64,000 nucleotides of DNA, taken from Ypsolopha sequella. Lineage: Eukaryota > Arthropoda > Insecta > Lepidoptera > Ypsolophidae. Numbering within the stretch: position 1 is the first letter of the stretch; each line of letters begins with the position of its first letter. The DNA lies in the NCBI GenBank assembly GCA_934047225.1, contig OW203997.1, forward strand, positions 1,226,417 to 1,290,416, given 5' to 3'. The translations under genes were made by a program, and so were the position numbers. The notes below the pieces were generated by a model. That model was not told the origin of the DNA. It worked only from the letters and a program-made list of their open reading frames with translations, and ran no database searches. This document shows, piece by piece, positions 12,846 to 64,000 of this stretch.

Positions 12846-12847
12846 TG

Positions 12848-13468: not shown

Positions 13469-13539
13469 AAAATACGTTACAACTAATATTTTTTATACTG
13501 CTCACATATAATGTTTATTAAGTCAAAATAAAACAACTC
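13466..13539 (+). repeat. Direct repeat, right flank of polymerase fragment
   Basis: Second copy of the 12774-12845 repeat, placed at the end of the polymerase fragment. Confidence 0.85.
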
Positions 13540-13636
13540 ATATCACATAACATAATATTTTATTTATAATATCATCAAATCAATCTGTTATAATAGTAGT
13601 TTAACATAAAATCGTTTAATATGGTATTATCATGAT

Positions 13637-18865: not shown

Positions 18866-19033
18866 ATCATGATAATACCATATTAAACGATTTTATGTTA
18901 AACTACTATTATAACAGATTGATTTGATGATATTATAAATAAAATATTATGTTATGTGATATGAGTTGTTTTATTTTGACTTAATAAACATTATATGTGA
19001 GCAGTATAAAAAATATTAGTTGTAACGTATTTT

Positions 19034-19654: not shown

Positions 19655-19748
19655 CAAGTTGTTTTATTTTAACTTAATAAACCTTATATGTGAGCAATAT
19701 AAAAATATAAGTTGTAACGTATTTTACAAAAGTAAGGAAGTGAAACGA

Positions 19749-20398: not shown

Positions 20399-21462
20399 TT
20401 GTTCGTTTTTTATAGACTGACAGGGATCAAAAACACCACTATAATAATAATAAAATAAGTCTTCTTTTATAAATAACAAAGTAAGTTCGAAAACTAGAAC
20501 GAGACTGATAAGTCGTCAGAGATCTTTATTGCTTATAAAGACAATTTACATCGTTAATAAATGATATAGATAAACAAGTATCCTAATAATAAATGACATG
20601 CACATAAACCATTACTAAGTGAATAATAACTTTGGAATGATTATAACAAAACTTTCGTGTTACTTATTTCATTATCAACAGATAAATAATGATCTCATTA
20701 ATAAATTACATGCAGGCACATAAACCAGTATTAAGTGAATAATAACTTTGGAATGACTATAACAAAACTTTCGCGTTACTCATTTCATCATCAACAGAAA
20801 AGTAATGAGATGAAACAATTATGTTTTCATCTTTCCATAAATCATTTTACCTGAAATCTAACTACTATCAGTTTTACTATGTCTATACCTCAGAACAATT
20901 TTATTACATCAATGGTCTATACTAATTTAGTAAACCTAAACGTGACCTGAGCATTGTTTTAGACGTTATTTCTACATATATGATTGACGTCAGTCACTGG
21001 ACCAAAGTAAATCAACTTTTATATCGTGTAGTAACATTCATCTGGACTGGAGATATCTTCAAAACAAACCATACAATAATTGAATCATTTTAAACATATC
21101 ATAAAATAATAACTTTGGCGTTTGTATGGAGAATTTGAAGAAAACTTGATATTCAGTAGGTGCTAAAATTTTTTTAGGAATGGAAGGTAAATCCACATTT
21201 TATAAAATTTCATGTTTAGAATGAGACAACATTAGAAAAGTGTCAGCTGTAGAAAAAAAAAACAACAATGACATGCACATAAAGTATTAAGTGAATAATA
21301 ACTTTGGAATGACTATAACAAAACTTTCGTGTTAATTATTTCATTATCAACAGATACATAATGATCCCATTAATAAATTACATGCATGCACATAAACCAG
21401 TATTAAGTGAATAGTCAATTAACTTGAGTTTTATTTTGGCAAATGTTGACACATCTCATTAA
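20399..21462. repeat. Right-arm subterminal region of palindrome 1
   Basis: Mirror of 11040-12103: direct repeats of the TATTCACTTAATA type and the terminal GACACATCTCA followed by TTAA. No gene. Confidence 0.8.
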
Positions 21463-24396: not shown

Positions 24397-25850
24397 TAAG
24401 TGTACCTACATAATTTGCAAAAAACTTCACTTATTGGACCTGAAATGGTGAGCCAATACTAGAGGGTAATTTCACGAAAAGGTCATTGACCTTTGTTACA
24501 GATCTCAGTAAGTATAAGTAAATTAATTTGGGTTTCAATAACGATCACAAAATTATTCTTTTAAAGTAACATATATTATTTTCCCGCATAAAAGTATGAA
24601 TTCAATCCAAATTCATTCAGTTTAGTTGTTATGACTATGGCACGATGTAGCTAAATGACTCATACGCATATTTTGTTGAGTTTTTAACGGCAGGAATATG
24701 ATGCTCCTCGAAATATTACTTTATAAAATTAATTTCAATGTGTTTTGAAGTAGTTTTGGGAGATATTTATAGCTTGCAAAAAAGGGCACAGGTTCCACGT
24801 CTTACGGGCGCCAACGCTAGGCGTAGACTGACAATATCTTGCTGCCGCTGACTGCATCAGTGGATTTACGTAGTTTTGGAAAAAGGGGGTGCTTTTTTTG
24901 ACCCGAATAACGTGGTATTTGGAAAATGAATAAATATCATTCACACTAATTTTATTTAAAAAAAACCAACAAAATCGCGAAAACGATACCTGAAACAAAA
25001 TCGATAAGAAGTGTGCAATAGAGGGTTACAAAAAAATTCATTGACAGTACAAATATGAATCGATTAACGTGGTTTGTGGAAAATGAATACCTTAAAGTTC
25101 AACCAAAAACATGTATTTTTTTTATGGCTATACGTAACCTAATTATTGCAACAAAATCATCCGAAAGCTGACATTTTATTTCTGTTTGTATTTTCGTTCC
25201 CCTTAACTAATTACTCAGTGGTCCAGAACCGGCGAAAACACACTACTACTGTCAACCAGCGGCATCCACGGGCCATTATACCAGGTGAATTTTTGATCAT
25301 CGTCCAAATTCATACTGGTGACTTGGTAAGTGATCAGTATCATGGATCAATAACAATTTTGGTGAAATTCGTAAAATGAAATTTCGACTCCCCATAGTGA
25401 TTCACTCGGGAGTGGAACTGAATTTCTATGGGAAGCCGAAATTTCAATTTACGAATTTCACAAAAATTGTTACTGATCCAAAATACTGATCACTTATTAA
25501 GCCTCCAGTATAAATTTGGACGATGATCAAAAAGTCACCTTGTATACAATGTGTAACAGAAAGGTGTAACCATATTTGAAGAGCTTATTCAGTAAATGGT
25601 ATAGAACAACTTTTACCATGGAAAAAACCCTGTATCTTGAAAAAAAAAATAACTATTTCATAGAAAATGCAATACCGCTCGGCTGAAATGTATGGAAGGG
25701 CAGATTATTTTTTTGGGTTTGGCTCCATAGTAAAAGTTGTTCTATACCATTGACTTCAAATAAGCTCTTCAAATATGGTTACACCTTTCTGTTACACCTT
25801 GTATAACATATTTATTGGAGCGAAATAAAAATTGTTTTGTTTTGTAGGGT
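24397..25850. other. Unassigned part of palindrome 2 left arm
   Basis: No supported gene. From about 25270 to 25850 short inverted motifs occur (ATTTCGACTCCCCATAG against CTATGGGAAGCCGAAATTTC, and TGGTTACACCTTTCTGTTAC near 25780 against 25560), consistent with an old foldback MITE; related sequence is seen at 49380-49430 and 51500-51600. Confidence 0.5.
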
Positions 25851-25994
25851 TCCCTAGACTAAGGGTGCCAAACTGGAACCTATTACTAGTTTCCGCTGCC
25901 TGTCCGTCTGTCACAGTGGTCTACAGCTTCTACCGTTATAGGTAGCCAATTTTTTTTTTACAGAATAGCGTCTATCACCACTGCAAATAATAAT

Positions 25995-26330
25995 AAAAAA
26001 ACCGGCCAAGTGCGAGTCGGAATCGCGCACGAAGGGTTCCGTACCATTATCCATAAAAACGGCAAAAAAAACATGTCTGTTGTATGGGAGCCCCCTTAAA
26101 TATTTATTTTATTCTGTTTTTTAGTATTTGTTGTTATAGCGGCAACAGAAATACATCATCTGTGAACATTTCAACTGTCTAACTATCACGGTTCATGAGA
26201 AACAGCCTGGTGACAGACGGACAGCGGAGTCTTAGTAATAGGGTCCCGTTGGTTACCCTTTGGGTACGGAACCCCAAAAAAATAACCGGACAATTGCGAG
26301 TCAGAGTCGCGAGCTTAGGGTTCCGTATTT
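25995..26330. repeat. Dispersed repeat of likely lepidopteran type, left arm copy
   Basis: CGGCCAAGTGCGAGTCGG at about 26000, GGGTTCCGTA at 26034, GTGACAGACGGACAGCGGAG at 26211 and a second inverted set to 26325. Mirrored at about 42459-42794. Such sequence is abundant in moth and butterfly genomes as far as I recall. Confidence 0.65.
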
Positions 26331-26472
26331 CAGTCAGAAAAATGGTATTTAATATTTTTCCCATAACATAAAACAAAAACAGTCATAAAACAAAACAAAA
26401 ACAATTGATCGATTGATTTAACAAAATAAAATAATTGATTATACCAGTTATCTAAAAAGTTATATAAGTATA

Positions 26473-27258
26473 TATCGCGGTTACATTTAGTTATGTTTAT
26501 ATCGTGGTTACATTTAGTTATGTTTATATCGTGGTTACATTTAGTTATGTTTATATCGTGGTTACATTTAGTTATGTTTATATCGCGGTTACATTTAGTT
26601 GTGTTTATACCGTGGTTACATTTAGTTATGTTTATATCGTGGTTACATTTAGTTATGTTTATATCGTGGTTACATTTAGTTATGTTTATATCGCGGTTAT
26701 ATTTAGTTATGTTTATATCGTGGTTACATTTAGTTATGTTTATATCGTGGTTACATTTAGTTATGTTTATATCGTGGTTACATTTAGTTATGTTTATATC
26801 GTGGTTACATTTAGTTATGTTTATATCGTGGTTACATTTAGTTATGTTTATATCGTGGTTACATTTAGTTATGTTTATATCGTGGTTACATTTAGTTATG
26901 TTTATGTCGTGGTTACATTTAGTTATGTTTATATCGCGGTTACATTTAGTTATGTTTATATCGTGGTTACATTTAGTTATGTTTATATCGTGGTTACATT
27001 TAGTTATGTTTATATCGCGGTTACATTTAGTTATGTATATATCGTGGTTATATTTAGTTATGTTTATATCGTGGTTACATTTAGTTATGTTTATATCGCG
27101 GTTATATTTAGTTATGTTTATATCGCGGTTATATTTAGTTATGTTTATATCGTGGTTACATTTAGTTATGTTTATATCGTGGTTATATTTAGTTATGTTT
27201 ATATCGTGGTTACATTTAGTTATGTTTATATCGTGGTTACATTTAGTTATGTTTATAT
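26473..27258. repeat. 27-bp minisatellite, first block, palindrome 2 left arm
   Basis: About 29 copies of a 27-bp unit containing GTTTATATCGTGGTTACATT. The unit length is a multiple of three and lacks stops in several frames, giving long meaningless open frames. It continues at 28986 after an inserted element. Confidence 0.97.
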
Positions 27259-28985
27259 TAGAAATGAAACGGATATCCGATTACTATCCGGTATCCGGCC
27301 TATTCGGCCATATTTTTGGTATCCGGTATCCGGCCGGATAGTAGCCAGTATCAGATACCGGATACTTAACTCAGCATAATAAAGTCGTTTAAATCACAAA
27401 ATAAATTGATTGTATCAATAATTGAATAATCCAAATTCACATAAAGTGAATAAGAGTTGAGATAAACATAAATACAAGCTTTACAGCAATTGTTGGGAAT
27501 AAACGTTTGTGTTTTTCTTCATACATTACACCAGCTTCTTTTGCCCTCACAATATACCGAATGTAACTCAACAGGTCATAAAAACACATGGTCTAAGAAT
27601 TATACTGAACAAGTTTTCCAAAGAAACATACTTGTGGAAATGAAAAAATATTTTCATGTTTTTTTATTCATTTTAAAAACCTATTGTGAATTTTAAAAGG
27701 GCACTGGGCGGGCAGGTTCCATTTTTTCAATATTTGGGATTTTTTTCAGTATGAACAGTAGATTACGCGGTTTCCTAGATGCCTGTCCATTTATGATGAT
27801 GATGATGATGATGATGTCCTCCTCATCGTAGTCCGACGACGGCGACCTCATGATTTGATGGACTTCTACGGCGATGAGCGCGAATATGACTCGTGAAACC
27901 CAGCTTGGTTCTAAAAGTCCGATTACAGCGACCGCAGTGTAGATCACCGCGACCGTTGTACGTGTATGTGTATGTGGGCTTCGGACGAGTCTTGCGCTGC
28001 TGCCGGTTGGAGTCAAGGGTCTCGAGTCTGGTTTCCTCGAACTCCTTTACACGATTATGGATGACCGAGCGCCACCCAATGCGCTCGCGAGCAGCTTCCT
28101 CTCAACTGCCAGGCGGAATGCCATAGGCGGTTAGATGCCTTTTCAGGACATCTTTATAACGAAGATGCTGTCCACCGGCTTTTCGCGCTCCGTATGACAG
28201 CTGAGAGTAAAAGACTTCTTTGGGCAGTCTCGCATCTTCCATGCGTACCACATGACCGCACCACCTAAGCTGAGATTTCATCAGCATTGCTTCCATGCCG
28301 TGCATTTGTGTCCGCCTCAGAACTTCCGTATTTGGAACACGGTCCTGCCAGGTTATCCTCAGGATGTTACGAAGGCACCTCATGTGGAAAGCATCCAGTT
28401 TTTTAACGTTTTTGCTATAGAGGCACCATGTTTCGGAGGCATATAGTAATATAGGCAGGACAATTGCCTTATAGACGGCCAGCTTCGTCTTCAGTTTTAG
28501 GTCGTGCGATTTCCAGACTCTGTCATTGAGTTTGCCAAAGGCGGAAGCGGCTCTTGCAATCCGCACCGGAATCTCAGTGTCCAGACGGTTGTCATTTCTG
28601 ATCTCAGTTCCAAGGTAGCGGAAGTGAGATACCACGTCTAAGACACAGTATACATATACAGTATACACCGCTGCAAGGAGACAAAATATGCAAATTTATG
28701 AATTTCGTTAAGATCGGAAAATGGTTTCGCGTTTGCAGACCAGCATTTGTATGATGTGGTACGAAATTTACATTTAAAAATGATCATCATTTAGAAAATG
28801 CACAAATAATCTCGCCCAGTTGCACCCGCACACACCTTGGTGCGTAATGTTTAGACTTGCTCAATTAGTGCGAAACGCATATCTTGAGCCGGATATTCGG
28901 TCCGAATATCCGGCTATCCGGCCGAGTGTCTCGCCGGATATCCGGTATCCGGTATCCGGCCAAATCACTATCCGTTTCATCTCTA
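27259..28985. mobile_element. hAT-like insertion splitting the 27-bp minisatellite
   Basis: Ends TAGAAATGAAACGGATA and, in reverse complement at the right, TAGAGATGAAACGGATA, followed inside by CCGGTATCCGG-rich subterminal repeats. The 8 bases GTTTATAT flank both sides (27251-27258, 28986-28993) and occur once in an uninterrupted unit, so this is a true 8-bp duplication as in hAT elements. No transposase remains; the interior carries an RTE LINE fragment. A copy is at 39777-41503. Confidence 0.85.
27779..28668 (-). pseudogene. RTE-like LINE 3' fragment, left arm copy
   Basis: Reads (minus strand) FRYLGTEIRNDNRLDTEI, YKAIVLPILLYASETW, MRCLRNILRITWQDRVPNTE, LRWCGHVVRMED, then a stop after GIPPGS. 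The same frame then continues to a C2H2 finger (LHCGRCNRTFRTKLGFTSHI) and ends in an ATC/GAT triplet repeat at about 27795, the usual RTE-type tail. Catalytic RT motifs are missing. It lies inside the hAT-like element. Confidence 0.85.
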
Positions 28986-29577
28986 GTTTATATCGTGGTT
29001 ACATTTAGTTATGTTTATATCGTGGTTACATTTAGTTATGTTTATATCGTGGTTACATTTAGTTATGTTTATATCGTGGTTACATTTAGTTATGTTTATA
29101 TCGTGGTTACATTTAGTTATATTTATATCGCGGTTATATTTAGTTATGTTTATATCGTGGTTACATTTAGTTATGTTTATATCGTGGTTATATTTAGTTA
29201 TGTTTATATCGTGGTTACATTTAGTTATGTTTATATCGTAGTTACATTTAGTTATGTTTATGTCGCGGTTACATTTAGTTGTGTTTATACCGTGGTTACA
29301 TTTAGTTATGTTTATATCGTGGTTACATTTAGTTATGTTTATATCGTGGTTACATTTAGTTATGTTTATATCGCGGTTATATTTAGTTATGTTTATATCG
29401 TGGTTACATTTAGTTATGTTTATACCGTGGTTACATTAAGTTATGTTTATATCGTGGTTACATTTAGTTATGTTTATATCGCGGTTACATTTAGTTATGT
29501 TTATATCGTGGTTACATTTAGTTATGTTTATATCGCGGTTACATTTAGTTATGTTTATACCGTGGTTACATTTGTAG
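28986..29577. repeat. 27-bp minisatellite, second block, left arm
   Basis: About 22 copies of the same 27-bp unit as at 26473, restored after the hAT-like insertion. A few units vary (for example CGCGG for CGTGG, ACCGTGG). Confidence 0.97.
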
Positions 29578-30312
29578 TTATGTTATATTGCGGTTTTTAG
29601 ATAGTTCAGAATGAAAAATGTCTGCACACACAAATATGTACCACCAAATATAGTTATCATGCAGTGGTTGCGAACCATGCGGACCACACCAAATTGGTTC
29701 ACGGGGTACCGGTTGCCGACCCCTGCTCTAGACACTTGGTGAACGATAGCTAGGCCGAAAAAAGTAAGACGTTAAAGTAAGAAAAAAGTAATAAAGTTTA
29801 TAGCACACCGTGCGTAAAATGACCACTTTACGCACGCTGCGCGTGCGTATAGTCGGCATTTTCCGCACTTGTGCTATAAAAAATTATACGAAACTCGTGC
29901 GAGAAACTTTTTCTCGACTCGTGTGATTGCAGCACTCGCCTTCGGCTCGTGCCGCAAACTCACACTCGTCAGAAAACGTTTCATCGCTCTCGTATCGTAA
30001 TGTACTATTATCAATACCATTTTTTTTATTAGTTTGTGCATGTTTATTCCACAGTAATTAGACTAATGTTTTGTCTGTTCGTTTGCTGTTTCCATTGAGT
30101 AATCGTTTATAATTATAATCGTATATATACTGTTATTATTTGAACTATTAATAACTCAAGTTATAACTTTTGCATTCATTGATCCTATAAACTTTAATTT
30201 TATAGGTTTCATTTACTTAGTTATTTACATTCTTTGGTCTTAACTTTAATTACCCAAACAATGAGATACGACGATACGATAAAACAGCGACGATATGTCG
30301 CCGAAGATCAGC
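29578..30312. other. Mixed short repeats in palindrome 2 left arm
   Basis: No gene. Contains an inverted segment ending in CCGACCCCTGCTCTAGA (about 29690-29733), typical of hAT-derived MITE ends, then stem-forming sequence with CGTGCGTAAAATGACCACTT around 29810-29870 and a long series of imperfect palindromes to 30000. Confidence 0.5.
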
Positions 30313-30472
30313 GGGTCTACCGCGTAATTCTGATTTTCATCAACATCAACTTGAGATTGAAATTCAACGCGTGCAAAAGAGATGGCATGTTAGGCGGGCG
30401 TCGTCGCACGCACGTCAAATTTCAATCTCAAGTTGATGTTGATGAAAATCAGAATTACGCGGTAGACCCACT
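30313..30472. mobile_element. Short hairpin MITE
   Basis: Arms of about 58 bp (beginning GGGTCTACCGCGTAATTCTG in reverse complement at the right end) pair around a short GC-rich loop. Open frames crossing it are chance. Confidence 0.7.
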
Positions 30473-30558
30473 GCCCTGGCAGATAGAGTGTCGGCTTTAC
30501 TCCGCTTCCCAAATTTATTTATATGAAAACATAGCACATCCCTCCTCGCGCCGCTTCC

Positions 30559-30872
30559 AAGGCTTGGTGAGCAACATTCTAAGGAAACCAGAAATAAGTA
30601 TAATATATATATATCTTGGCCAGAGAATCAGTCTGGCCATTCAAAGAGGAAACGCTGCCAGCCTTCTAGGTACCCTTCCACATGACGGTGGCGATCTAGA
30701 TAGGATTTTTTATTTAGTTTAGTTTATTTTTATAAAGTATAGGTTTTATAAGGGTTTTATTTAGGTAAGTGTTTTGTTTTAGTTAAGTTTTATTTTGTAG
30801 GTAGACTTTTAAGTGTTTGATTGTTATGTATATTTAATAAAATTACATTAATTGTGAAGTATAAACTGGCTT
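30559..30872 (+). mobile_element. LINE tail inserted in another LINE
   Basis: AAGGCTTGGTGAGCAACATT at 30559 belongs to the Jockey-like LINE seen at 3360. It breaks at AAGTATA and resumes after a second AAGTATA at about 30858. Between lies the end of a different LINE (C-terminus AIQRGNAASLLGTLPHDG, then a UTR). The 7-base duplication marks a normal LINE insertion. Mirrored in the right arm. Confidence 0.75.
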
Positions 30873-37529: not shown

Positions 37530-37994
37530 TGAGCACGCGATATGACGGCAGTGCTTTGTATCACCATAGGTTTTAAAAATAGCGGGAAGTGAAGAGAAAT
37601 AATTACGAAGATGAAAGATCTGACCTTGGGAAGGAGCTGCATGCACCACAAACCACGCTTCGCCTGAGCCACCAAGTCTCTGGTGTTCTCCAAGATGGTT
37701 TTCTTCTTCCTCTTCGTGCCTGGTTGCGCTCTTCTCGGCTAATCTTCTTCGTAATAGTAATAGATGAAAATGAGGCGCACAGCGGGTGCGATCTCAAAAT
37801 GGCGGGCGGTAGGGTCGAGGTAGGACCTAGTCGAATGACAATCAGCGTATACCTCCGGCGTGAAAGGCTTCTGATTGACGACTGATTGATTTGCGTCCAA
37901 AACTAAGCGGGTGGAGATGCAGCGAAAATGACAGTTGAAAATATTAATTCACAACTACCCCGCAGTATGAGAGCCACAAGAAGTGGCGCGAACA
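37530..37994 (-). repeat. 5' LTR of the BEL/Pao element
   Basis: 465 bp, aligned over its whole length with 31159-31623. It carries the element promoter by analogy with the family. Confidence 0.95.
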
Positions 37995-39184
37995 CTTACC
38001 TAAATAAAACCCTTATAAAACCTATACTTTATAAAAATAAACTAAACTAAATAAAAAATCCTATCTAGATCGCCACCGTCATGTGGAAGGGTACCTAGAA
38101 GGCTGGCAGCGTTTCCTCTTTGAATGGCCAGACTGATTCTCTGGCCAAGATATATATATATTATACTTATTTCTGGTTTCCTTAGAATGTTGCTCACCAA
38201 GCCTTGGAAGCGGCGCGAGGAGGGATGTGCTATGTTTTCATATAAATAAATTTGGGAAGCGGAGTAAAGCCGACACTCTATCTGCCAGGGCAGTGGGTCT
38301 ACCGCGTAATTCTGATTTTCATCAACATCAACTTGAGATTGAAATTTGACGTGCGTGCGACGACGCCCGCCTAACATGCCATCTCTTTTGCACGCGTTGA
38401 ATTTCAATCTCAAGTTGATGTTGATGAAAATCAGAATTACGCGGTAGACCCGCTGATCTTTGGCGACATATCGTCGCTGTTTTATCGTATCGTCGTATCT
38501 CATTGTTTGGGTAATTAAAGTTAAGACCAAAGAATGTAAATAACTAAGTAAATGAAACCTATAAAATTAAAGTTTATAGGATCAATGAATGCAAAAGTTA
38601 TAACTTGAGTTATTAATAGTTCAAATAATAACAGTATATATACGATTATAATTATAAACGATTACTCAATGGAAACAGCAAACGAACAGACAAAACATTA
38701 GTCTAATTACTGTGGAATAAACATGCACAAACTAATAAAAAAAATGGTATTGATAATAGTACATTACGATACGAGAGCGATGAAACGTTTTCTGACGAGT
38801 GTGAGTTTGCGGCACGAGCCGAAGGCGAGTGCTGCAATCACACGAGTCGAGAAAAAGTTTCTCGCACGAGTTTCGTATAATTTTTTATAGCACAAGTGCG
38901 GAAAATGCCGACTATACGCACGCGCAGCGTGCGTAAAGTGGTCATTTTACGCACGGTGTGCTATAAACTTTATTACTTTTTTCTTACTTTAACGTCTTAC
39001 TTTTTTCGGCCTAGCTATCGTTCACCAAGTGTCTAGAGCAGGGGTCGGCAACCGGTACCCCGTGAACCAATTTGGTGTGGTCCGCATGGTTCGCAACCAC
39101 TGCATGATAACTATATTTGGTGGTACATATTTGTGTGTGCAGACATTTTTCATTCTGAACTATCTAAAAACCGCAATATAACAT

Positions 39185-39776
39185 AACTACAAATGTAACC
39201 ACGGTATAAACATAACTAAATGTAACCGCGATATAAACATAACTAAATGTAACCACGATATAAACATAACTAAATGTAACCGCGATATAAACATAACTAA
39301 ATGTAACCACGATATAAACATAACTTAATGTAACCACGGTATAAACATAACTAAATGTAACCACGATATAAACATAACTAAATATAACCGCGATATAAAC
39401 ATAACTAAATGTAACCACGATATAAACATAACTAAATGTAACCACGATATAAACATAACTAAATGTAACCACGGTATAAACACAACTAAATGTAACCGCG
39501 ACATAAACATAACTAAATGTAACTACGATATAAACATAACTAAATGTAACCACGATATAAACATAACTAAATATAACCACGATATAAACATAACTAAATG
39601 TAACCACGATATAAACATAACTAAATATAACCGCGATATAAATATAACTAAATGTAACCACGATATAAACATAACTAAATGTAACCACGATATAAACATA
39701 ACTAAATGTACACGATATAAACATAACTAAATGTAACCACGATATAAACATAACTAAATGTAACCACGATATAAAC
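39185..39776. repeat. 27-bp minisatellite, right arm, block facing the centre
   Basis: Mirror of 28986-29577. One unit near 39710 lacks two bases (ATGTACACGATAT for ATGTAACCACGATAT). Confidence 0.97.
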
Positions 39777-41503
39777 TAGAGATGAAACGGATAGTGATTT
39801 GGCCGGATACCGGATACCGGATATCCAGCGAGACACTCGGCCGGATAGCCGGATATTCGGACCGAATATCCGGCTCAAGATATGCGTTTCGCACTAATTG
39901 AGCAAGTCTAAACATTACGCACCAAGGTGTGTGCGGGTGCAACTGGGCGAGATTATTTGTGCATTTTCTAAATGATGATCATTTTTAAATGTAAATTTCG
40001 TACCACATCATACAAATGCTGGTCTGCAAACGCGAAACCATTTTCCGATCTTAACGAAATTCATAAATTTGCATATTTTGTCTCCTTGCAGCGGTGTATA
40101 CTGTATATGTATACTGTGTCTTAGACGTGGTATCTCACTTCCGCTACCTTGGAACTGAGATCAGAAATGACAACCGTCTGGACACTGAGATTCCGGTGCG
40201 GATTGCAAGAGCCGCTTCCGCCTTTGGCAAACTCAATGACAGAGTCTGGAAATCGCACGACCTAAAACTGAAGACGAAGCTGGCCGTCTATAAGGCAATT
40301 GTCCTGCCTATATTACTATATGCCTCCGAAACATGGTGCCTCTATAGCAAAAACGTTAAAAAACTGGATGCTTTCCACATGAGGTGCCTTCGTAACATCC
40401 TGAGGATAACCTGGCAGGACCGTGTTCCAAATACGGAAGTTCTGAGGCGGACACAAATGCACGGCATGGAAGCAATGCTGATGAAATCTCAGCTTAGGTG
40501 GTGCGGTCATGTGGTACGCATGGAAGATGCGAGACTGCCCAAAGAAGTCTTTTACTCTCAGCTGTCATACGGAGCGCGAAAAGCCGGTGGACAGCATCTT
40601 CGTTATAAAGATGTCCTGAAAAGGCATCTAACCGCCTATGGCATTCCGCCTGGCAGTTGAGAGGAAGCTGCTCGCGAGCGCATTGGGTGGCGCTCGGTCA
40701 TCCATAATCGTGTAAAGGAGTTCGAGGAAACCAGACTCGAGACCCTTGACTCCAACCGGCAGCAGCGCAAGACTCGTCCGAAGCCCACATACACATACAC
40801 GTACAACGGTCGCGGTGATCTACACTGCGGTCGCTGTAATCGGACTTTTAGAACCAAGCTGGGTTTCACGAGTCATATTCGCGCTCATCGCCGTAGAAGT
40901 CCATCAAATCATGAGGTCGCCGTCGTCGGACTACGATGAGGAGGACATCATCATCATCATCATCATCATAAATGGACAGGCATCTAGGAAACCGCGTAAT
41001 CTACTGTTCATACTGAAAAAAATCCCAAATATTGAAAAAATGGAACCTGCCCGCCCAGTGCCCTTTTAAAATTCACAATAGGTTTTTAAAATGAATAAAA
41101 AAACATGAAAATATTTTTTCATTTCCACAAGTATGTTTCTTTGGAAAACTTGTTCAGTATAATTCTTAGACCATGTGTTTTTATGACCTGTTGAGTTACA
41201 TTCGGTATATTGTGAGGGCAAAAGAAGCTGGTGTAATGTATGAAGAAAAACACAAACGTTTATTCCCAACAATTGCTGTAAAGCTTGTATTTATGTTTAT
41301 CTCAACTCTTATTCACTTTATGTGAATTTGGATTATTCAATTATTGATACAATCAATTTATTTTGTGATTTAAACGACTTTATTATGCTGAGTTAAGTAT
41401 CCGGTATCTGATACTGGCTACTATCCGGCCGGATACCGGATACCAAAAATATGGCCGAATAGGCCGGATACCGGATAGTAATCGGATATCCGTTTCATTT
41501 CTA
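39777..41503. mobile_element. hAT-like insertion, right arm copy
   Basis: Mirror of 27259-28985 with the same ends and flanking ATATAAAC duplication. Its presence in both arms shows the insertion predates the inverted duplication. Confidence 0.85.
40094..40983 (+). pseudogene. RTE-like LINE 3' fragment, right arm copy
   Basis: Same content as 27779-28668 on the opposite strand: RT C-terminal region (40094-40660), one stop, then a frame with a C2H2 finger around 40823-40893 and a CATCATCAT tail near 40950. Not functional. Confidence 0.85.
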
Positions 41504-42316
41504 ATATAAACATAACTAAATGTAACCACGATATAAACATAACTAAATGTAACCACGATATAAACATAACTAAATATAACCACGATATAAACATAACTAA
41601 ATGTAACCACGATATAAACATAACTAAATATAACCGCGATATAAACATAACTAAATATAACCGCGATATAAACATAACTAAATGTAACCACGATATAAAC
41701 ATAACTAAATATAACCACGATATATACATAACTAAATGTAACCGCGATATAAACATAACTAAATGTAACCACGATATAAACATAACTAAATGTAACCACG
41801 ATATAAACATAACTAAATGTAACCGCGATATAAACATAACTAAATGTAACCACGATATAAACATAACTAAATGTAACCACGATATAAACATAACTAAATG
41901 TAACCACGATATAAACATAACTAAATGTAACCACGATATAAACATAACTAAATGTAACCACGATATAAACATAACTAAATGTAACCACGATATAAACATA
42001 ACTAAATGTAACCACGATATAAACATAACTAAATGTAACCACGATATAAACATAACTAAATGTAACCACGATATAAACATAACTAAATATAACCGCGATA
42101 TAAACATAACTAAATGTAACCACGATATAAACATAACTAAATGTAACCACGATATAAACATAACTAAATGTAACCACGGTATAAACACAACTAAATGTAA
42201 CCGCGATATAAACATAACTAAATGTAACCACGATATAAACATAACTAAATGTAACCACGATATAAACATAACTAAATGTAACCACGATATAAACATAACT
42301 AAATGTAACCGCGATA
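41504..42316. repeat. 27-bp minisatellite, right arm, outer block
   Basis: Mirror of 26473-27258 with one unit more (30 rather than 29). Long open frames here are products of the repeat period. Confidence 0.97.
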
Positions 42317-44388
42317 TATACTTATATAACTTTTTAGATAACTGGTATAATCAATTATTTTATTTTGTTAAATCAATCGATCAATTGTTTTTGTTTTGTT
42401 TTATGACTGTTTTTGTTTTATGTTATGGGAAAAATATTAAATACCATTTTTCTGACTGAAATACGGAACCCTAAGCTCGCGACTCTGACTCGCAATTGTC
42501 CGGTTATTTTTTTGGGGTTCCGTACCCAAAGGGTAACCAACGGGACCCTATTACTAAGACTCCGCTGTCCGTCTGTCACCAGGCTGTTTCTCATGAACCG
42601 TGATAGTTAGACAGTTGAAATGTTCACAGATGATGTATTTCTGTTGCCGCTATAACAACAAATACTAAAAAACAGAATAAAATAAATATTTAAGGGGGCT
42701 CCCATACAACAGACATGTTTTTTTTGCCGTTTTTATGGATAATGGTACGGAACCCTTCGTGCGCGATTCCGACTCGCACTTGGCCGGTTTTTTTATTATT
42801 ATTTGCAGTGGTGATAGACGCTATTCTGTAAAAAAAAAATTGGCTACCTATAACGGTAGAAGCTGTAGACCACTGTGACAGACGGGCAGCGGAAACTAGT
42901 AATAGGTTCCAGTTTGGCACCCTTAGTCTAGGGAACCCTACAAAACAAAACAATTTTTATTTCGCTCCAATAAATATGTTATACAAGGTGTAACAGAAAG
43001 GTGTAACCATATTTGAAGAGCTTATTTGAAGTCAATGGTATAGAACAACTTTTACTATGGAGCCAAACCCAAAAAAATAATCTGCCCTTCCATACATTTC
43101 AGCCGAGCGGTATTGCATTTTCTATGAAATAGTTATTTTTTTTTTCAAGATACAGGGTTTTTTCCATGGTAAAAGTTGTTCTATACCATTTACTGAATAA
43201 GCTCTTCAAATATGGTTACACCTTTCTGTTACACATTGTATACAAGGTGACTTTTTGATCATCGTCCAAATTTATACTGGAGGCTTAATAAGTGATCAGT
43301 ATTTTGGATCAGTAACAATTTTTGTGAAATTCGTAAATTGAAATTTCGGCTTCCCATAGAAATTCAGTTCCACTCCCGAGTGAATCACTATGGGGAGTCG
43401 AAATTTCATTTTACGAATTTCACCAAAATTGTTATTGATCCATGATACTGATCACTTACCAAGTCACCAGTATGAATTTGGACGATGATCAAAAATTCAC
43501 CTGGTATAATGGCCCGTGGATGCCGCTGGTTGACAGTAGTAGTGTGTTTTCGCCGGTTCTGGACCACTGAGTAATTAGTTAAGGGGAACGAAAATACAAA
43601 CAGAAATAAAATGTCAGCTTTCGGATGATTTTGTTGCAATAATTAGGTTACGTATAGCCATAAAAAAAATACATGTTTTTGGTTGAACTTTAAGGTATTC
43701 ATTTTCCACAAACCACGTTAATCGATTCATATTTGTACTGTCAATGAATTTTTTTGTAACCCTCTATTGCACACTTCTTATCGATTTTGTTTCAGGTATC
43801 GTTTTCGCGATTTTGTTGGTTTTTTTTAAATAAAATTAGTGTGAATGATATTTATTCATTTTCCAAATACCACGTTATTCGGGTCAAAAAAAGCACCCCC
43901 TTTTTCCAAAACTACGTAAATCCACTGATGCAGTCAGCGGCAGCAAGATATTGTCAGTCTACGCCTAGCGTTGGCGCCCGTAAGACGTGGAACCTGTGCC
44001 CTTTTTTGCAAGCTATAAATATCTCCCAAAACTACTTCAAAACACATTGAAATTAATTTTATAAAGTAATATTTCGAGGAGCATCATATTCCTGCCGTTA
44101 AAAACTCAACAAAATATGCGTATGAGTCATTTAGCTACATCGTGCCATAGTCATAACAACTAAACTGAATGAATTTGGATTGAATTCATACTTTTATGCG
44201 GGAAAATAATATATGTTACTTTAAAAGAATAATTTTGTGATCGTTATTGAAACCCAAATTAATTTACTTATACTTACTGAGATCTGTAACAAAGGTCAAT
44301 GACCTTTTCGTGAAATTACCCTCTAGTATTGGCTCACCATTTCAGGTCCAATAAGTGAAGTTTTTTGCAAATTATGTAGGTACACTTA

Positions 44389-46112
44389 CTTGGGATAAAT
44401 CGCCAAGCATTTAAAATATAGAAATTTATTTTGAAATAATTACAGTGCATGGCAAAATTATTAGATCGTAGATAATCCTGTCGGTACATGTTCAGGTTCT
44501 GTTACGCAAAATGAAAACAATGAAACTCTTTTAGGATTAATTTGTTATCCCTATATTTGTCTGTCTGTCCGTTTGTCTAGACAATTTTTTCTGGGTAAAA
44601 TTAATAAATACCAATATAAACGGCCCTATATAGAGCTGTAAAAACATACTTTTGACGTTTTTATTTATATTACGTTTTAGGTTTTTACGGTTTTTTTTTT
44701 TTTAGTTTTTCATACAAATTTTCTCACTATGAAAATGTAGGGATGAACACTTGAGATAATATTTTGCATTTAAAAGTCAACACTGAAAGGAATTGTTGAA
44801 CAAATAATGTAAAAAATATGAAAACCATGTTGTTCTATTCTAAAGGGATTAATTATCTACTGTTCAATGTGGCGATAGCTTTGTTTATTTTTTTCCTTGA
44901 ATTATTTTTTACTAAGATAACAAATAGTTTAATACAAGGTTTTCCTTAAGAGGTCCCTTTACCCCTGTATTTTTCTTAAAATTCATACAATAGGTATAAA
45001 CCGAATGTGAAGTCTACAGCTTATTTTCTTCATATCTTTTTTCATGAGTATATTCTAGTGACATCTAACTACGTCTCTATATAGCCCAAAAAGCAAAATT
45101 TCATAAAACACCATCATAATAGCTGTCAGGATATCGTCAATATTGCCTCGTTTTTACGCAAAGTTTAACAAGTTTGTATATTTTTATCTATACTGGAAAT
45201 AAAAAAGAGAGAAATACAGGCGTCGTTCATGTTAAGATGACTAAGTTTACACACTTTGCTAAGTACAAACAATTACCGTTTCATGGAAAACTGTTTTGAC
45301 CTGAAACCATTTCACAAATTCAATTAACTTATTTTGAATATCTTGTCATCTTGCACTTCTTGATGAGAAATACAATTTCAATAAGTAAAAATACAACTTT
45401 TAGTTAAGAAAACTTATAGTTAAAAGTCTGCTGTATGCATTAACATATTTTTAATGATATTACAATAGTAATAAAATAATTGGCTTATCCGTCGTCGTGA
45501 TACCAGCCGTAAATTTCTTAAATAATCTGATATCACGCTTATGAAAAACCTAATTATTTTGAAGATACCATAATATCATTAAAATATGTTTATGCATATA
45601 GCAAACTTTTAACAATAAATTGTCTTAGCTAAAAGTTGTACTTTACCGTTATAATTATTTCTTAATATTTTGTTACAAATTCGGAGAAATAGCCCTTAAG
45701 GAAAACCTTGTATGAAAATATTTGTTATCTTTGTAACAAAGAAAAAAATAATAATAAACAAAGCTATCGCCACATTGAACAAACAGTAAATTATTAATCC
45801 CTTTAGAATAGAAAGATATGGTTTTATATTTTTTACATTATTTGTTCTACAGTTTCTTTCTGTGCTTTCTTTCAAATGCAAAATAAATAAAAAACGTTAT
45901 AATATGTATATTTTACAGGACTGTAAATATTAGCATTTATTGATTTTACCCAGAAAAATTGCCTAGACAAACGGAAAAACAGACAAACATAGGAACAACA
46001 AATTAATCCTAAAAGAGTTTTGTTTTTTCATTTTGCGTAAAGGGACCTGAACATTTCAAACTATGATACAAATAAATTTCTATATTTTAAACACTTGGCG
46101 ATTTATCCCAAG
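44389..46112. mobile_element. Nested foldback element, right arm copy
   Basis: Mirror of 22645-24396, about 28 bp shorter because of a gap near 45885. Confidence 0.75.
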
Positions 46113-52029: not shown

Positions 52030-52424
52030 TTATCCACAAGTACACTTTGTGGTATTGCTTTTGGTATTATACTTGAAGTTGAACATAGGGCGTCCTTGGA
52101 TACCCAGCCCTGTTACTGCAAACGTTGCGCCGTTGTTGTTAACATCCAGTGATTGTCCCATGTGCTGGTTAGTTGGTCCTTTCATAGTGGTTACATACAT
52201 AGTGTCCAAATTAGCTCCTCCAAAGGCGACCGAAGTGACAGCAACGACCGGCAGAGGTAGATATATCCTTTGAAGTAGTTTTCCTGTTTTAGGATCAATG
52301 TGAAAGACGGCTCCTCCACCATTGTTCGCCACTAGAAGTTTTCCGTCAGTGTCGATTGTCATTCCATCTAGAATGCCTGTCATTATCCCACTTGTTTTGC
52401 CGTCAAACACGTATGTTTTGTTAC
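52030..52424 (-). CDS. Regucalcin/SMP-30-like protein, copy B, terminal exon 4
   Basis: Encodes 130 residues and the stop. It reads LDGMTIDTDGKLLVANNGGG, then HIDPKTGKLLQRIYLP and VTSVAFGGANLDTMYVTT, the last blades of the SMP-30 propeller; the Asp of DGMTID corresponds to metal ligand Asp204 of human regucalcin. The C-terminus (TGLGIQGRPMFNFKYNTKS then NTTKCTCG) has two Cys not typical of the family. The acceptor TTTTGTTCACAG precedes 52424, and the exon completes the codon begun in exon 3 (T + GT, Cys). Confidence 0.92.
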
Positions 52425-54084: not shown

Positions 54085-54804
54085 TCTATGGTACGTGTGA
54101 CGTCTATGGTACGTGTGACGTCTATGGTACGTGTAACGTCTATGGTACGTGTAACGTCTATGGTACGTGTAACGTCTATGGTACGTGTAACGTCTATGGT
54201 ACGTGTAACGTCTATGGTACGTGTAACGTCTATGGTACGTGTGACGTCTATGGTACGTGTGACGTCTATGGTACGTGTGACGTCTATGGTACGTGTGACG
54301 TCTATGGTACGTGTAACGTCTATGGTACGTGTAACGTCTATGGTACGTGTGACGTCTATGGTACGTATGACGTCTATGGTACGTGTGACGTCTATGGTAC
54401 GTGTGACGTCTATGGTACGTGTAACGTCTATGGTACGTGTAACGTCTATGGTACGTGTAACGTCTATGGTACGTGTGACGTCTATGGTACGTGTGACGTC
54501 TATGGTACGTGTGACGTCTATGGTACGTGTAACGTCTATGGTACGTGTAACGTCTATGGTACGTGTGATGTCTATGGTACGTGTGACGTCTATGGTACGT
54601 GTGACGTCTATGGTACGTGTGACGTCTATGGTACGTGTAACGTCTATGGTACGTGTAACGTCTATGGTACGTGTAACGTCTATGGTACGTGTGACGTCTA
54701 TGGTACGTGTGACGTCTATGGTACGTGTGACGTCTATGGTACGTGTAACGTCTATGGTACGTGTAACGTCTATGGTACGTGTAACGTCTATGGTACGTGT
54801 AACG
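54085..54804. repeat. 18-bp minisatellite, 40 units, in intron 3 of copy B
   Basis: Exactly 40 units of TCTATGGTACGTGTGACG (or GTAACG). No indels. Each unit contains TACGTG and, across the junction, TGACGTCT in about half of the units. Open frames on both strands (MVRVTS, VTRTID, TYHRR) result from the period. Confidence 0.98.
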
Positions 54805-55345
54805 TACAGTAAATATAACCACATATTTTATTTAACTATCCCATAAATAACTCTCCTTCTTTATTAGACCTTTTAATTATTAACAAAGTAAATCTCCCAA
54901 CTAGTCCTTCATATATCCTTTCCTTTTCTGATAAAGACGCCACTAGAGCATTAGCCTTATTCTTAGTCCTCAACAAAATCACACTGTAGCTAAGTAGACC
55001 ACTATAATCCATTACAGATGTCATCCAACCCTTCTTATTTATCTAACTGTATAATTAAAACAGGTATACCTTACTATATACTAGTAATATCCTTAAGTTT
55101 ATTCTTTCACTATGTATCTAACTTCACCATACGAAACCAACTTTTATTTTACTCATCTTCATACGTATATTACATTTCCATCGATCGATATTTATATTTA
55201 TTATAATTTTATTTCTCTCAAGAGGTAATAACTCGTCCCTTCCTTCTTCTTATTATATTTTCTTTTAATATCACTTGACGCTGGCAAAACTGACCTTTAA
55301 AAAAGGAGTCCGTACTTGCCATAAAAAAAAAAAAAAAAATATATA
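54805..55345. mobile_element. Probable retroposed fragment with A-tail
   Basis: Ends in CTTGCCATAAAAAAAAAA (about 55316-55337) followed by AT repeats. No recognisable protein; a short minus-strand frame (54836-55024) is not convincing. Confidence 0.4.
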
Positions 55346-57626: not shown

Positions 57627-60164
57627 AAATATTTCCAGTCTTTATGTCATAGTCATATCTTCGAATCTTCAAGAACTCGGCCGAGTCGATGTAATAGAAG
57701 GCGCTTTCGTTCTTGTCCCAGATGAGTCCATTACCTATAGTGATCCCACTTTCGTTCTTGTCCCAGATGAGTCCATTACCTATAGTGATCCCACTTTCGT
57801 TCTTGTCCCAGATGAGTCCATTACCTATAGTGATCCCACTTTCGTTCTTGTCCCAGATGAGTCCATTACCTATAGTGATCCCACTTTCGTTCTTGTCCCA
57901 GATGAGTCCATTACCTATAGTGATCCCACTTTCGTTCTTGTCCCAGATGAGTCCATTACCTATAGTGATCCCACTTTCGTTCTTGTCCCAGATGAGTCCA
58001 TTACCTATAGTGATCCCACTTTCGTTCTTGTCCCAGATGAGTCCATTACCTATAGTGATCCCACTTTCGTTCTGGTCCCAGATGAGTCCATTACCTATAG
58101 TGATCCCACTTTCGTTCTGGTCCCAGATGAGTCCATTACCTATAGTGATCCCACTTTCGTTCTGGTCCCAGATGAGTCCATTACCTATAGTGATCCCACT
58201 TTCGTTCTGGTCCCAGATGAGTCCATTACCTATAGTGATCCCACTTTCGTTCTGGTCCCAGATGAGTCCATTACCTATAGTGATCCCACTTTCGTTCTGG
58301 TCCCAGATGAGTCCATTACCTATAGTGATCCCACTTTCGTTCTGGTCCCAGATGAGTCCATTACCTATAGTGATCCCACTTTCGTTCTGGTCCCAGATGA
58401 GTCCATTACCTATAGTGATCCCACTTTCGTTCTGGTCCCAGATGAGTCCATAACCTATAGTGATCCCACTTTCGTTCTGGTCCCAGATGAGTCCATTACC
58501 TATAGTGATCCCACTTTCGTTCTGGTCCCAGATGAGTCCATTACCTATAGTGATCCCACTTTCGTTCTGGTCCCAGATGAGTCCATTACCTATAGTGATC
58601 CCACTTTCGTTCTGGTCCCAGATGAGTCCATTACCTATAGTGATCCCACTTTCGTTCTGGTCCCAGATGAGTCCATTACCTATAGTGATCCCACTTTCGT
58701 TCTGGTCCCAGATGAGTCCATTACCTATAGTGATCCCACTTTCGTTCTGGTCCCAGATGAGTCCATTACCTATAGTGATCCCACTTTCGTTCTTGTCCCA
58801 GATGAGTCCATTACCTATAGTGATCCCACTTTCGTTCTGGTCCCAGATGAGTCCATTACCTATAGTGATCCCACTTTCGTTCTGGTCCCAGATGAGTCCA
58901 TTACCTATAGTGATCCCACTTTCGTTCTTGTCCCAGATGAGTCCATTACCTATAGTGATCCCACTTTCGTTCTGGTCCCAGATGAGTCCATTACCTATAG
59001 TGATCCCACTTTCGTTCTGGTCCCAGATGAGTCCATTACCTATAGTGATCCCACTTTCGTTCTGGTCCCAGATGAGTCCATTACCTATAGTGATCCCACT
59101 TTCGTTCTGGTCCCAGATGAGTCCATTACCTATAGTGATCCCACTTTCGTTCTTGTCCCAGATGAGTCCATTACCTATAGTGATCCCACTTTCGTTCTGG
59201 TCCCAGATGAGTCCATTACCTATAGTGATCCCACTTTCGTTCTGGTCCCAGATGAGTCCATTACCTATAGTGATCCCACTTTCGTTCTGGTCCCAGATGA
59301 GTCCATTACCTATAGTGATCCCACTTTCGTTCTGGTCCCAGATGAGTCCATTACCTATAGTGATCCCACTTTCGTTCTGGTCCCAGATGAGTCCATTACC
59401 TATAGTGATCCCACTTTCGTTCTGGTCCCAGATGAGTCCATTACCTATAGTGATCCCACTTTCGTTCTGGTCCCAGATGAGTCCATTACCTATAGTGATC
59501 CCACTTTCGTTCTGGTCCCAGATGAGTCCATTACCTATAGTGATCCCACTTTCGTTCTGGTCCCAGATGAGTCCATTACCTATAGTGATCCCACTTTCGT
59601 TCTGGTCCCAGATGAGTCCATTACCTATAGTGATCCCACTTTCGTTCTGGTCCCAGATGAGTCCATTACCTATAGTGATCCCACTTTCGTTCTGGTCCCA
59701 GATGAGTCCATTACCTATAGTGATCCCACTTTCGTTCTGGTCCCAGATGAGTCCATTACCTATAGTGATCCCACTTTCGTTCTGGTCCCAGATGAGTCCA
59801 TTACCTATAGTGATCCCACTTTCGTTCTGGTCCCAGATGAGTCCATTACCTATAGTGATCCCACTTTCGTTCTGGTCCCAGATGAGTCCATTACCTATAG
59901 TGATCCCACTTTCGTTCTGGTCCCAGATGAGTCCATTACCTATAGTGATCCCACTTTCGTTCTGGTCCCAGATGAGTCCATTACCTATAGTGATCCCACT
60001 TTCGTTCTGGTCCCAGATGAGTCCATTACCTATAGTGATCCCACTTTCGTTCTGGTCCCAGATGAGTCCATTACCTATAGTGATCCCACTTTCAAGCGTT
60101 GAAATCTTGGAGCCATCTACACTGTACAATGATGATGTAGGAAGGGCATCCAATGACATTGTAC
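57627..60164 (-). CDS. Regucalcin/SMP-30-like protein, copy B, exon 3 with 53 in-frame 15-residue repeats
   Basis: The exon is 2538 nt, phase 1 at both ends (acceptor TTTGTAG at 60165-60171, donor GTAAGT at 57626-57621). It reads TMSLDALPTSSLYSVDGSK, then 53 copies of SGITIGNGLIWDQNE (or KNE), then SAFYYIDSAEFLKIRRYDYD and KTGNI. Single-copy family members have one such segment; its Asn is the Asn154 metal ligand of human regucalcin. Removing 52 units leaves about 198 nt, a normal exon. No stop or indel occurs in 795 codons of array; a 45-bp unit stays open by its period, so the support comes from flanking homology and splice phase. If translated, this adds 780 residues to a protein of about 360. 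Exons 1 and 2 of this copy are outside the window. Confidence 0.85.
57706..60090. repeat. 45-bp exonic minisatellite, 53 units
   Basis: Exactly 53 x 45 bp. The only clear variation is one base that changes Lys to Gln (11 Lys, 42 Gln units) and one unit at 58441 with Asn to Tyr. The first eight units from the left (3' end of the exon) all have Lys, like the unit fused to the downstream unique part; three more Lys units are scattered near 58786, 58921 and 59146. Confidence 0.98.
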
Positions 60165-62582: not shown

Positions 62583-63459
62583 ATTGCGGACTTATTGTGA
62601 TAACTCTATGTAACACTACGAGCGCATTGTGATAACTCTATGTAACACTACGAGCGCATTGTGATAACTCTATGTAACACTACGAGCGCATTGTGATAAC
62701 TCTATGTAATACTACGAGCGCATTGTGATAACTCTATGTAACACTACGAGCGCATTGTGATAACTCTATGTAACACTACGAGCGCATTGTGATAACTCTA
62801 TGTAACACTACGAGCGCATTGTGATAACTCTATGTAATACTACGAGCGCATTGTGATAACTCTATGTAACACTACGAGCGCATTGTGATAACTCTATGTA
62901 ATACTACGAGCGCATTGTGATAACTCTATGTAACACTACGAGCGCATTGTGATAACTCTATGTAACACTACGAGCGCATTGTGATAACTCTATGTAATAC
63001 TACGAGCGCATTGTGATAACTCTATGTAATACTACGAGCGCATTGTGATAACTCTATGTAACACTACGAGCGCATTGTGATAACTCTATGTAATACTACG
63101 AGCGCATTGTGATAACTCTATGTAACACTACGAGCGCATTGTGATAACTCTATGTAATACTACGAGCGCATTGTGATAACTCTATGTAACACTACGAGCG
63201 CATTGTGATAACTCTATGTAATACTACGAGCGCATTGTGATAACTCTATGTAACACTACGAGCGCATTGTGATAACTCTATGTAATACTACGAGCGCATT
63301 GTGATAACTCTATGTAACACTACGAGCGCATTGTGATAACTCTATGTAATACTACGAGCGCATTGTGATAACTCTATGTAACACTACGAGCGCATTGTGA
63401 TAACTCTATGTAATACTACGAGCGCATTGTGATAACTCTATGTAACACTACGAGCGCAT
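62583..63459. repeat. 32-bp minisatellite, 27 units, intron 2 of copy B
   Basis: Unit CATTGTGATAACTCTATGTA plus 12 bases (ACACTACGAGCG). One C/T site (AACAC or AATAC) distinguishes units; from about 63059 rightward C and T alternate strictly, so the right half is a 64-bp dimer array. Confidence 0.97.
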
Positions 63460-64000
63460 TAAACCTACAAGTTACAGAAGATGAGTTTTCGAAAGCTGAA
63501 ATATTTGCTATTGTTATCTACTCAAACAAGAAATTGGGGCTTCAGGAATCAGAAAAACTAGATGAGTTGAAAGCGTTAAGGGGCAGGTAGTCACCAAAGA
63601 CCTTAAATCGACCTCTGTCGGTACAAATATCGACAGTAACTATATTGAAATAACGTTCACATCAGCGCGCACTACATTACGAACGTCCGTCGCTGGGTCT
63701 CCGGGTAGCGCAAAATAGGAAAAAATAATACATACTTTTCACTTGGACACGACGGAAAAATCCATAAATGATTTTTCCAAGCAATATTTTCCTTGTATGC
63801 AAGAACCATACATACCTAGTCTGGTCATAAGTTCTGTCACACGCTTTTTATTTCCAATTTCGTATACTAGTTTAGTTCTATAGTTTAGAACTGTCGAGGT
63901 TTACAAAAATAAAACATTTCTAGATTTGATTTTAAAACATAGAGTGGACGCAGAAAGAAGACAATCGCGATTATTGCGTTGCATCACTGCGGTTACGTGA
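63460..64000. other. Right-edge sequence
   Basis: No gene, exon or element recognised. Presumably still intron 2 of regucalcin copy B. Confidence 0.4.

What the first reader, a model, noticed from the sequence alone, without database searches (positions are those of the whole stretch)
57627..60164. A coding exon of a regucalcin paralog contains 53 in-frame copies of a 15-residue segment
Seen: 53 exact-length 45-bp units between splice-competent, phase-matched flanks that encode normal SMP-30 sequence on both sides. Known: regucalcin is a compact six-bladed propeller of about 300 residues with one such segment. Inference: either an active gene makes a protein with a long repeat insertion in one blade, or an exonic expansion has disabled the copy. 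The unit is a piece of the native fold, not a typical low-complexity insert.
Basis: partly seen in the sequence, partly recalled or inferred. Interest (0 to 1): 0.92.

Follow-up and report, generated by a model that had tools for sequence, protein, structure and literature searches.

The report
53-fold repeat inside insect enzyme gene
One exon of an otherwise intact-looking regucalcin-like gene in a likely moth or butterfly genome carries 53 head-to-tail, in-frame copies of a 15-residue piece of the protein, which were likely made by the same repeat-expansion process seen in the neighbouring non-coding DNA and are predicted to triple the protein's length unless splicing removes them.

Summary
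Exon 3 (57627-60164, minus strand) of a four-exon SMP-30/regucalcin-family gene holds 53 complete 45-bp units with only two variable bases. The gene, third of five in a cluster, has an assembled frame open for 1,156 residues, phase-matched splice sites and a signal-like leader. Four active-site residues align with regucalcin. Neither the four paralogues nor 122 database relatives show the expansion. The locus is rich in minisatellites of the same style: 16 arrays in 180 kb, this one included; 8 of 10 non-coding arrays compared are also indel-free. The array is best read as a young coding minisatellite, not a selected design. The rest of the gene looks constrained (10 nonsynonymous, 9 synonymous changes, p=0.018), though that may predate the array. 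Each unit also carries AG|GT: splicing from the first to the last would remove exactly 52 units and restore a normal protein, matching a published intron-birth model, but the acceptor is weak. There is no RNA evidence.

The parts
57627..60164 (-). Exon 3 of gene C (2,538 nt, a multiple of 3), phase-1 acceptor and phase-1 donor
57706..60090 (-). 53 x 45-bp units in codon phase, each coding SGITIGNGLIWD(Q/K)NE (one unit has Y for the first N); TRF reports the same array in another register as 57704-60093
60091..60164 (-). 5' part of exon 3, family sequence GTMSLDALPTSSLYSVDGSKISTLE
57627..57705 (-). 3' part of exon 3, family sequence SAFYYIDSAEFLKIRRYDYDIKTGNI, then the donor T|GTAAGT
52030..52424 (-). 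Exon 4 of gene C with the stop codon (PF08450 match); exons 2 and 1 lie outside the window at C14:1292586-1292789 and C14:1293762-1294095
54085..54805 (.). Non-coding 18-bp array, 40 copies, in the intron between exons 3 and 4 of gene C (comparison array)
62594..63460 (.). Non-coding 32-bp array, 27 copies, in the intron between exons 2 and 3 of gene C (comparison array)

Best explanation
Exon 3 of this regucalcin-family gene holds 53 in-frame 45-bp copies of one segment, which is likely a young coding minisatellite born by slippage or unequal exchange in a minisatellite-rich locus and is predicted to be translated as an extra ~780 residues in a surface loop of a likely secreted propeller protein. 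Shown: the array, the open frame, the single-unit state of the paralogues, the array density of the locus and the intact remaining exons. Inferred: (1) the first duplication may have used the GAAAG(T/C)G direct repeat 45 bp apart that sister gene D still has. (2) Expansion kept frame simply because the unit is 45 bp and these arrays rarely gain or lose single bases, not because selection policed it. (3) The unit spans one inter-blade loop, the metal-ligand Asn, one inner strand and one hairpin turn (recalled topology), so any one unit could complete the native blade while the other 52 loop out. A folded enzyme core with a long repetitive appendage is therefore possible; misfolding is the alternative outcome.
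For: Array anatomy. 16 arrays of 10 or more copies and period 10 or more in 179,800 bases of this locus (this array included), covering 17,836 bp, against 1 array in 80,000 bases around the family's other cluster on C21. Of 11 arrays compared, 9 including the exon array have no step off the period; neighbour identity of the exon array is 0.9962, next to 0.9967 for a 70-bp array in an intron of gene B. In this genome the array is found only in gene C; exon 3 is single in A, B, D and E. Frame open for 1,156 codons, one terminal stop. Sister gene D has GAAAGTG and GAAAGCG exactly 45 bp apart. C-branch changes 10 nonsynonymous and 9 synonymous, P=0.018 against the neutral share; D branch 47.5 and 14.5, P=0.48. 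Glu18, Asn103, Asn154 and Asp204 of regucalcin all align to identical residues in C.
Against: No RNA, protein or read data, so expression, inclusion of the exon and the exact copy number are untested. Constraint on the C branch may predate the array, and gene conversion with gene B could lower the C-branch counts (exon 2 of B matches at 89%, exon 4 at 72%). C against D over the whole coding sequence gives dN/dS 0.84, not clearly below 1. The microhomology is weak evidence: 15 different 5-mers repeat somewhere in exon 3 of gene D. Both variable sites in the array change amino acids, so nothing in the array itself shows protein-level constraint. Array density was compared in two regions only. 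The loop placement rests on recalled propeller topology, not on a model of the whole protein. A 780-residue insertion may simply wreck the fold.
Confidence: 0.55

Rival explanations
1. The array is removed from the RNA as a newborn intron. [quoted passage not shown]
For: 53 AG|GT sites in exon 3, all in the same codon phase; first-to-last splicing gives 376 residues and one terminal stop. Predicted U1 pairing of the unit donor is -6.5 kcal/mol; 4 of 12 donors in genes B-E are weaker, and between 2.7% and 5.9% of 4,000 sampled GT sites are as strong. Published precedent: introns across 24-bp AGGT-bearing duplicates in fission yeast, and ATP2A1 in vertebrates (PMC4974935, Introduction read). It would reconcile the expansion with constraint on the gene.
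Against: The unit's acceptor side is poor: pyrimidines 0.35 and T 0.18 in the 17 bases upstream, against 0.41-0.76 and 0.41-0.59 in the 11 of 12 acceptors of genes B-E that I scored. Other AGs in the unit would compete. AGGT is not rare: 256 of 1,785 45-bp segments of the B and D coding sequence hold it.
Confidence: 0.15
2. The expansion has disabled the copy: the protein misfolds or the exon is mis-spliced, and the gene is a pseudogene whose other exons have not yet decayed.
For: A 780-residue insertion inside an enzyme core is drastic. 53 cryptic donors compete with the true donor (U1 pairing -6.5 against -7.3), and exon skipping or first-cryptic-donor use would give in-frame shortened products lacking blade parts (311 and 341 codons including the stop). 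Sister gene D already evolves without detectable constraint.
Against: No internal stop, frameshift or broken splice site in the four coding exons; C is the shortest branch of its clade (0.057 against 0.13 and 0.29).
Confidence: 0.2
3. The array is selected as protein: a secreted fibre or beta-solenoid with repeated metal-site loops.
For: Signal-like leader; AlphaFold2 gives a regular beta-solenoid, mean pLDDT 82 for a 191-residue piece and 78 for the exon.
Against: [quoted passage not shown] The 191-residue model has no PDB match at E<=0.001 (best 0.011). The two variable sites give no sign of selection, and similar arrays sit in non-coding DNA nearby.
Confidence: 0.06
4. Assembly error: the true allele has few units and the copy number is inflated.
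For: The one run of N in the fetched 180 kb lies inside another long array, the 70-bp array of gene B, so arrays can trouble this assembly.
Against: The exon array is 57 kb from that gap and contains no N; its three kinds of unit are partly interspersed, which a plain copying error would be less likely to give (inference).
Confidence: 0.04

Closest known systems
SMP-30/gluconolactonase/LRE family (PF08450): regucalcin, luciferin-regenerating enzyme
   Same: One-unit form matches PF08450 at 181.6 bits over positions 2-245 of 246 and solved luciferin-regenerating enzyme 5d9b at E=3e-54, regucalcin 4gn7 at E=7e-39; active-site residues kept.
   Different: One segment is present 53 times; the protein is predicted to be 1,156 residues instead of roughly 300-375; a signal-like leader is present, as in paralogues B and D.
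Coding minisatellites / coding VNTRs (Prdm9 zinc fingers, mucins, LPA KIV-2; titles and abstract starts seen in a search listing only)
   Same: Homogeneous, frame-preserving tandem units inside coding sequence, expanding as DNA.
   Different: Those units are whole domains or mucin-type repeats (recalled); here the unit is a sub-blade piece of an enzyme core that contains a metal ligand.
Beta-propellers amplified from single blades (Pereira and Lupas 2022, PMC9218822; abstract and passages read)
   Same: Recent tandem amplification inside a propeller, with near-identical copies.
   Different: Their unit is a whole blade of typically 40-50 residues; here it is 15 residues, about one strand with its loops, so it cannot by itself add blades. 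The words regucalcin and SMP-30 do not occur in the main text.
Intron gain by tandem duplication of AGGT-bearing exon segments (Rogers model; PMC4974935, abstract and Introduction read)
   Same: Tandem exonic copies each with AGGT; splicing between copies would leave the peptide unchanged; fission-yeast genes with several 24-bp copies are the nearest precedent.
   Different: 53 copies instead of a few; splicing is untested here and the acceptor looks weak.

Membership tests
SMP-30/regucalcin/LRE (PF08450) | Profile match above the curated cut-off over the whole domain | tested here: met
   One-unit form 181.6 bits against 26.3, positions 2-245 of 246; the exon alone scores 24.1, just under the cut-off
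SMP-30/regucalcin/LRE (PF08450) | Metal and substrate residues Glu18, Asn103, Asn154, Asp204 (roles recalled) | tested here: met
   All four align to identical residues against 4gn7; paralogue D has lost three of the four
SMP-30/regucalcin/LRE (PF08450) | Closed six-bladed propeller | not tested
   Only exon 3 and a piece of it were modelled
SMP-30/regucalcin/LRE (PF08450) | Lactonase or calcium-related activity | not testable with these tools
   Needs biochemistry
Coding minisatellite / VNTR | Homogeneous head-to-tail units of 10-100 bp inside a coding exon, frame kept | tested here: met
   53 x 45 bp, 2 variable sites, frame open; that the exon is coding rests on frame, splice sites and homology, not on RNA
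Coding minisatellite / VNTR | Copy-number variation between individuals | not testable with these tools
   Only one assembly is held; the array appears once in it
AGGT tandem-duplication intron | Each duplicate carries AG|GT in one phase | tested here: met
   53 of 53 sites in the same phase
AGGT tandem-duplication intron | Usable polypyrimidine tract and acceptor | tested here: inconclusive
   Pyrimidine 0.35 against 0.41-0.76 in 11 local acceptors
AGGT tandem-duplication intron | Spliced RNA joining two copies | not testable with these tools
   No RNA data held
Blade amplification of beta-propellers | Repeat unit is a whole blade (40-50 residues) | tested here: not met
   Unit is 15 residues; blade size from PMC9218822

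The most novel reading that the evidence does not exclude
A natural intron birth caught in the act: a 45-bp AG|GT-bearing piece of an enzyme exon has multiplied to 53 copies, and the spliceosome uses the first and last AG|GT to cut out exactly 52 copies, so the gene tolerates a 2.3-kb exonic array while still making a normal protein, with intermediate splice choices giving a ladder of proteins that differ by whole 15-residue units.
Probability: 0.13. Interest if true: 0.88.

Novelty: new variant of a known kind. Interest (0 to 1): 0.6.

Why it matters
Coding repeats usually sit in linkers, mucin-like stretches or whole repeat domains (recalled). Here a piece of a compact enzyme core, carrying a metal-ligand residue, is present 53 times in a gene that is otherwise intact and looks constrained. 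Either a closed propeller tolerates some 780 extra residues, or splicing hides them, or the gene is dying. RNA would tell these apart easily, and the second outcome would be an unusually large natural test of the AGGT duplication model of intron origin. The paralogues, one of them a likely dead enzyme, give ready controls.

Tried and rejected
Chance or TRF artefact: rejected; every unit was read out. Frame conservation as proof of selection: rejected; 8 of the 10 non-coding arrays compared are also free of off-period steps. Beta-solenoid as the protein's real fold: not accepted, because AlphaFold2 is reported to give confident beta-solenoids for perfect repeats; Foldseek with the 191-residue model found no PDB match at E<=0.001 (the larger model was not searched); the larger model has pTM 0.42. 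Relatives with the same array: none found; the exon search gave 16 candidates and no match. That search reaches only proteins of 0.55-1.75 times the query's length that share exact words. A search of long proteins with the first 204 residues of gene C gave 2 of 1,249 candidates: one with three concatenated regucalcin domains and one fused to an otherwise unrelated protein. None of the 122 fetched relatives has an exact tandem duplication of period 5-60; inexact ones were not sought. RNA families: none at gathering score in the window. Papers: three of the ten searches named regucalcin (2, 42 and 0 papers, of the 42 only 15 listed); no listed title or abstract start mentions repeats inside it. 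The library is open-licence only, so this does not show that nothing is in print. A first variant map used a wrong offset and is void; one search replaces it. Genome-wide sampling of array density was not possible.

Full report
WHAT IS THERE. TRF reports an array of period 45 with 53.1 copies at window 57704-60093, with 99% matches and no indels. Read out on the minus strand there are 53 complete units, AGT GGG ATC ACT ATA GGT AAT GGA CTC ATC TGG GAC (C/A)AG AAC GAA, coding SGITIGNGLIWD(Q/K)NE. Only two of 45 positions vary: 42 units read CAG and 11 AAG at one codon, and one unit has TAT for AAT. In coding order the Lys-type units are the last eight plus three scattered ones.

THE GENE. The window lies on contig C14 (1226417-1290416) of an 867-Mb assembly. 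PF03260, recalled as a lepidopteran lipoprotein family, is present in it and in none of 14 control genomes. The controls named are prokaryotes, so the order is likely, not proven. The highest-identity named relatives of paralogue B (50-54%) are Lepidoptera, although two beetle and one wasp protein rank first by E-value at 39-40% identity. Five regucalcin-family genes (A to E) lie at C14:1208382-1366240. Gene C, the third, has four coding exons on the minus strand: C14:1293762-1294095, 1292586-1292789, 1284043-1286580 and 1278446-1278840. The last two are in the window at 57627-60164 and 52030-52424. Joined, they give 3,471 bases with one stop, at the end: 1,156 residues. Splice sites and phases match the paralogues. 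The first 17 residues are strongly hydrophobic (mean Kyte-Doolittle 2.31), and B and D start in the same way. By eye this looks like a signal peptide; no predictor was run.

FAMILY MEMBERSHIP. With one unit in place of 53, the protein scores 181.6 bits against PF08450. It matches solved luciferin-regenerating enzyme and regucalcin (E 3e-54 and 7e-39). Counting along the 4gn7 alignment, Glu18, Asn103, Asn154 and Asp204 all face identical residues; their roles in metal and substrate binding are recalled. The unit corresponds to residues 148-162, so 52 of the 53 copies repeat the Asn154 position (one has Tyr there). Paralogue D has lost Glu18, Asn103 and Asn154 (GSSPYWD, RISGGSAD, GHGL).

NO EXPANSION ELSEWHERE. 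In this genome the exon-3 DNA matches only gene C's array and single copies in D (86%) and B (85%); exon 3 is also single in A and E. Among the 120 listed protein relatives (of 436 matches, 3,087 candidates) a motif scan finds one NGLxW-like site in 111, two in 5 and none in 4. Of the five, P0003 and P0049 have two sites about 300 residues apart, which I read as two whole domains; the other three look like chance hits. Two longer relatives have three sites (three domains in a row) and one. In a tree of 63 proteins (five own, 58 of the 120) B, C and D form their own clade (100/100) on a long stem (0.97), C and D are sisters (99/95), and C has the shortest tip (0.057; D 0.29, B 0.13). The simplest reading is that the array arose in gene C after the C/D split.

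ORIGIN. The 179,800 bases of this locus hold 16 arrays of at least 10 copies and period at least 10, this one included, 17,836 bp in all; the 80,000 bases fetched around the family's other cluster hold one. Two regions are too few to call this a hotspot, and genome-wide sampling was not possible. I compared 11 arrays, 10 of them non-coding. The exon array is as homogeneous as a 70-bp array in an intron of gene B (0.9962 and 0.9967), and 8 of the 10 non-coding arrays also show no step off the period. Constant unit length in the exon is therefore not evidence of selection. Gene D keeps GAAAGTG and GAAAGCG 45 bp apart, a plausible seed for the first duplication, but weak evidence, since 15 different 5-mers repeat in that exon.

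IS THE GENE KEPT? Without the extra units, C against D gives dN/dS 0.84 (bootstrap 0.59-1.24) and C against B 0.37 (0.27-0.51). Polarised with B, the C branch has 10 nonsynonymous and 9 synonymous changes (P=0.018 against the neutral share) and the D branch 47.5 and 14.5 (P=0.48). So C looks constrained while D does not. Caveats: simple counting, possible gene conversion with B, and the array may be younger than the constraint.

HOW IT MIGHT WORK. From recalled propeller topology, the unit covers the loop into a blade, its inner strand with the metal ligand, and the next hairpin turn. The 52 extra copies could then loop out while one copy completes the blade. AlphaFold2 on a 191-residue piece (mean pLDDT 82, pTM 0.77) and on the 845-residue exon (78, pTM 0.42) draws a beta-solenoid. 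AlphaFold2 is reported to do this for perfect repeats of random sequence (PMC11795689, abstract), and the 191-residue model has no PDB match at E<=0.001. I do not rely on it.

SPLICING ALTERNATIVES. Every unit holds ATAG|GTAATG. All 53 sites fall in one phase, the phase that fits both flanking exons. The predicted U1 pairing is -6.5 kcal/mol, against -7.3 for the exon's true donor; 4 of 12 donors in genes B-E are weaker. First-to-last unit splicing would remove 2,340 bases and leave a 376-residue one-unit protein; skipping exon 3 or using the first cryptic donor also stays in frame. The unit's acceptor context is weaker than all 11 local acceptors scored. The AGGT duplication model and its fission-yeast and ATP2A1 examples are taken from the Introduction of PMC4974935.

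VERDICT. A real, striking coding minisatellite in an otherwise intact regucalcin-family gene. Its making is most likely ordinary for this locus. Its consequence, tolerated insertion, hidden by splicing, or slow death of the gene, is open and easily tested. It is a new variant of a known kind: the sub-blade, active-site unit and the copy number are what set it apart.

Noticed in passing
window 22900-30773 and 37991-45885: Very large inverted repeat: arms of nearly 8 kb (in pieces 99-100% complementary), about 7.2 kb between them, with 27-bp arrays inside both arms; recent palindrome, large element or assembly fold-back.
   Followed up: partly
window 11040-15216 and 16757-21462: A second inverted repeat, arms of over 4 kb made of two ungapped pieces at 100%, about 1.5 kb between them, in the same stretch between genes B and C.
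   Followed up: partly
C14:1224488-1228614 (window 1-2198 is part): A 70-bp array spanning about 59 periods fills the end of gene B's intron next to exon 3, ending about 10 bp before the acceptor, and holds a 200-N gap, so its true length is unknown.
   Followed up: partly
C14:1312954-1328513 (gene D): Sister paralogue with an open frame but three of four active-site residues lost and 47.5 nonsynonymous to 14.5 synonymous changes: a likely pseudoenzyme or relaxed gene.
   Followed up: partly
genes B, C, D: A long-stemmed clade without close relatives among the 58 database proteins in the tree, all three with signal-like leaders; at least one outside protein (P0027, Mythimna separata) also starts with such a leader.
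   Followed up: partly
P0121 (Anticarsia gemmatalis, 876 aa): A database protein made of three regucalcin domains in a row, real fusion or merged gene models.
   Followed up: no
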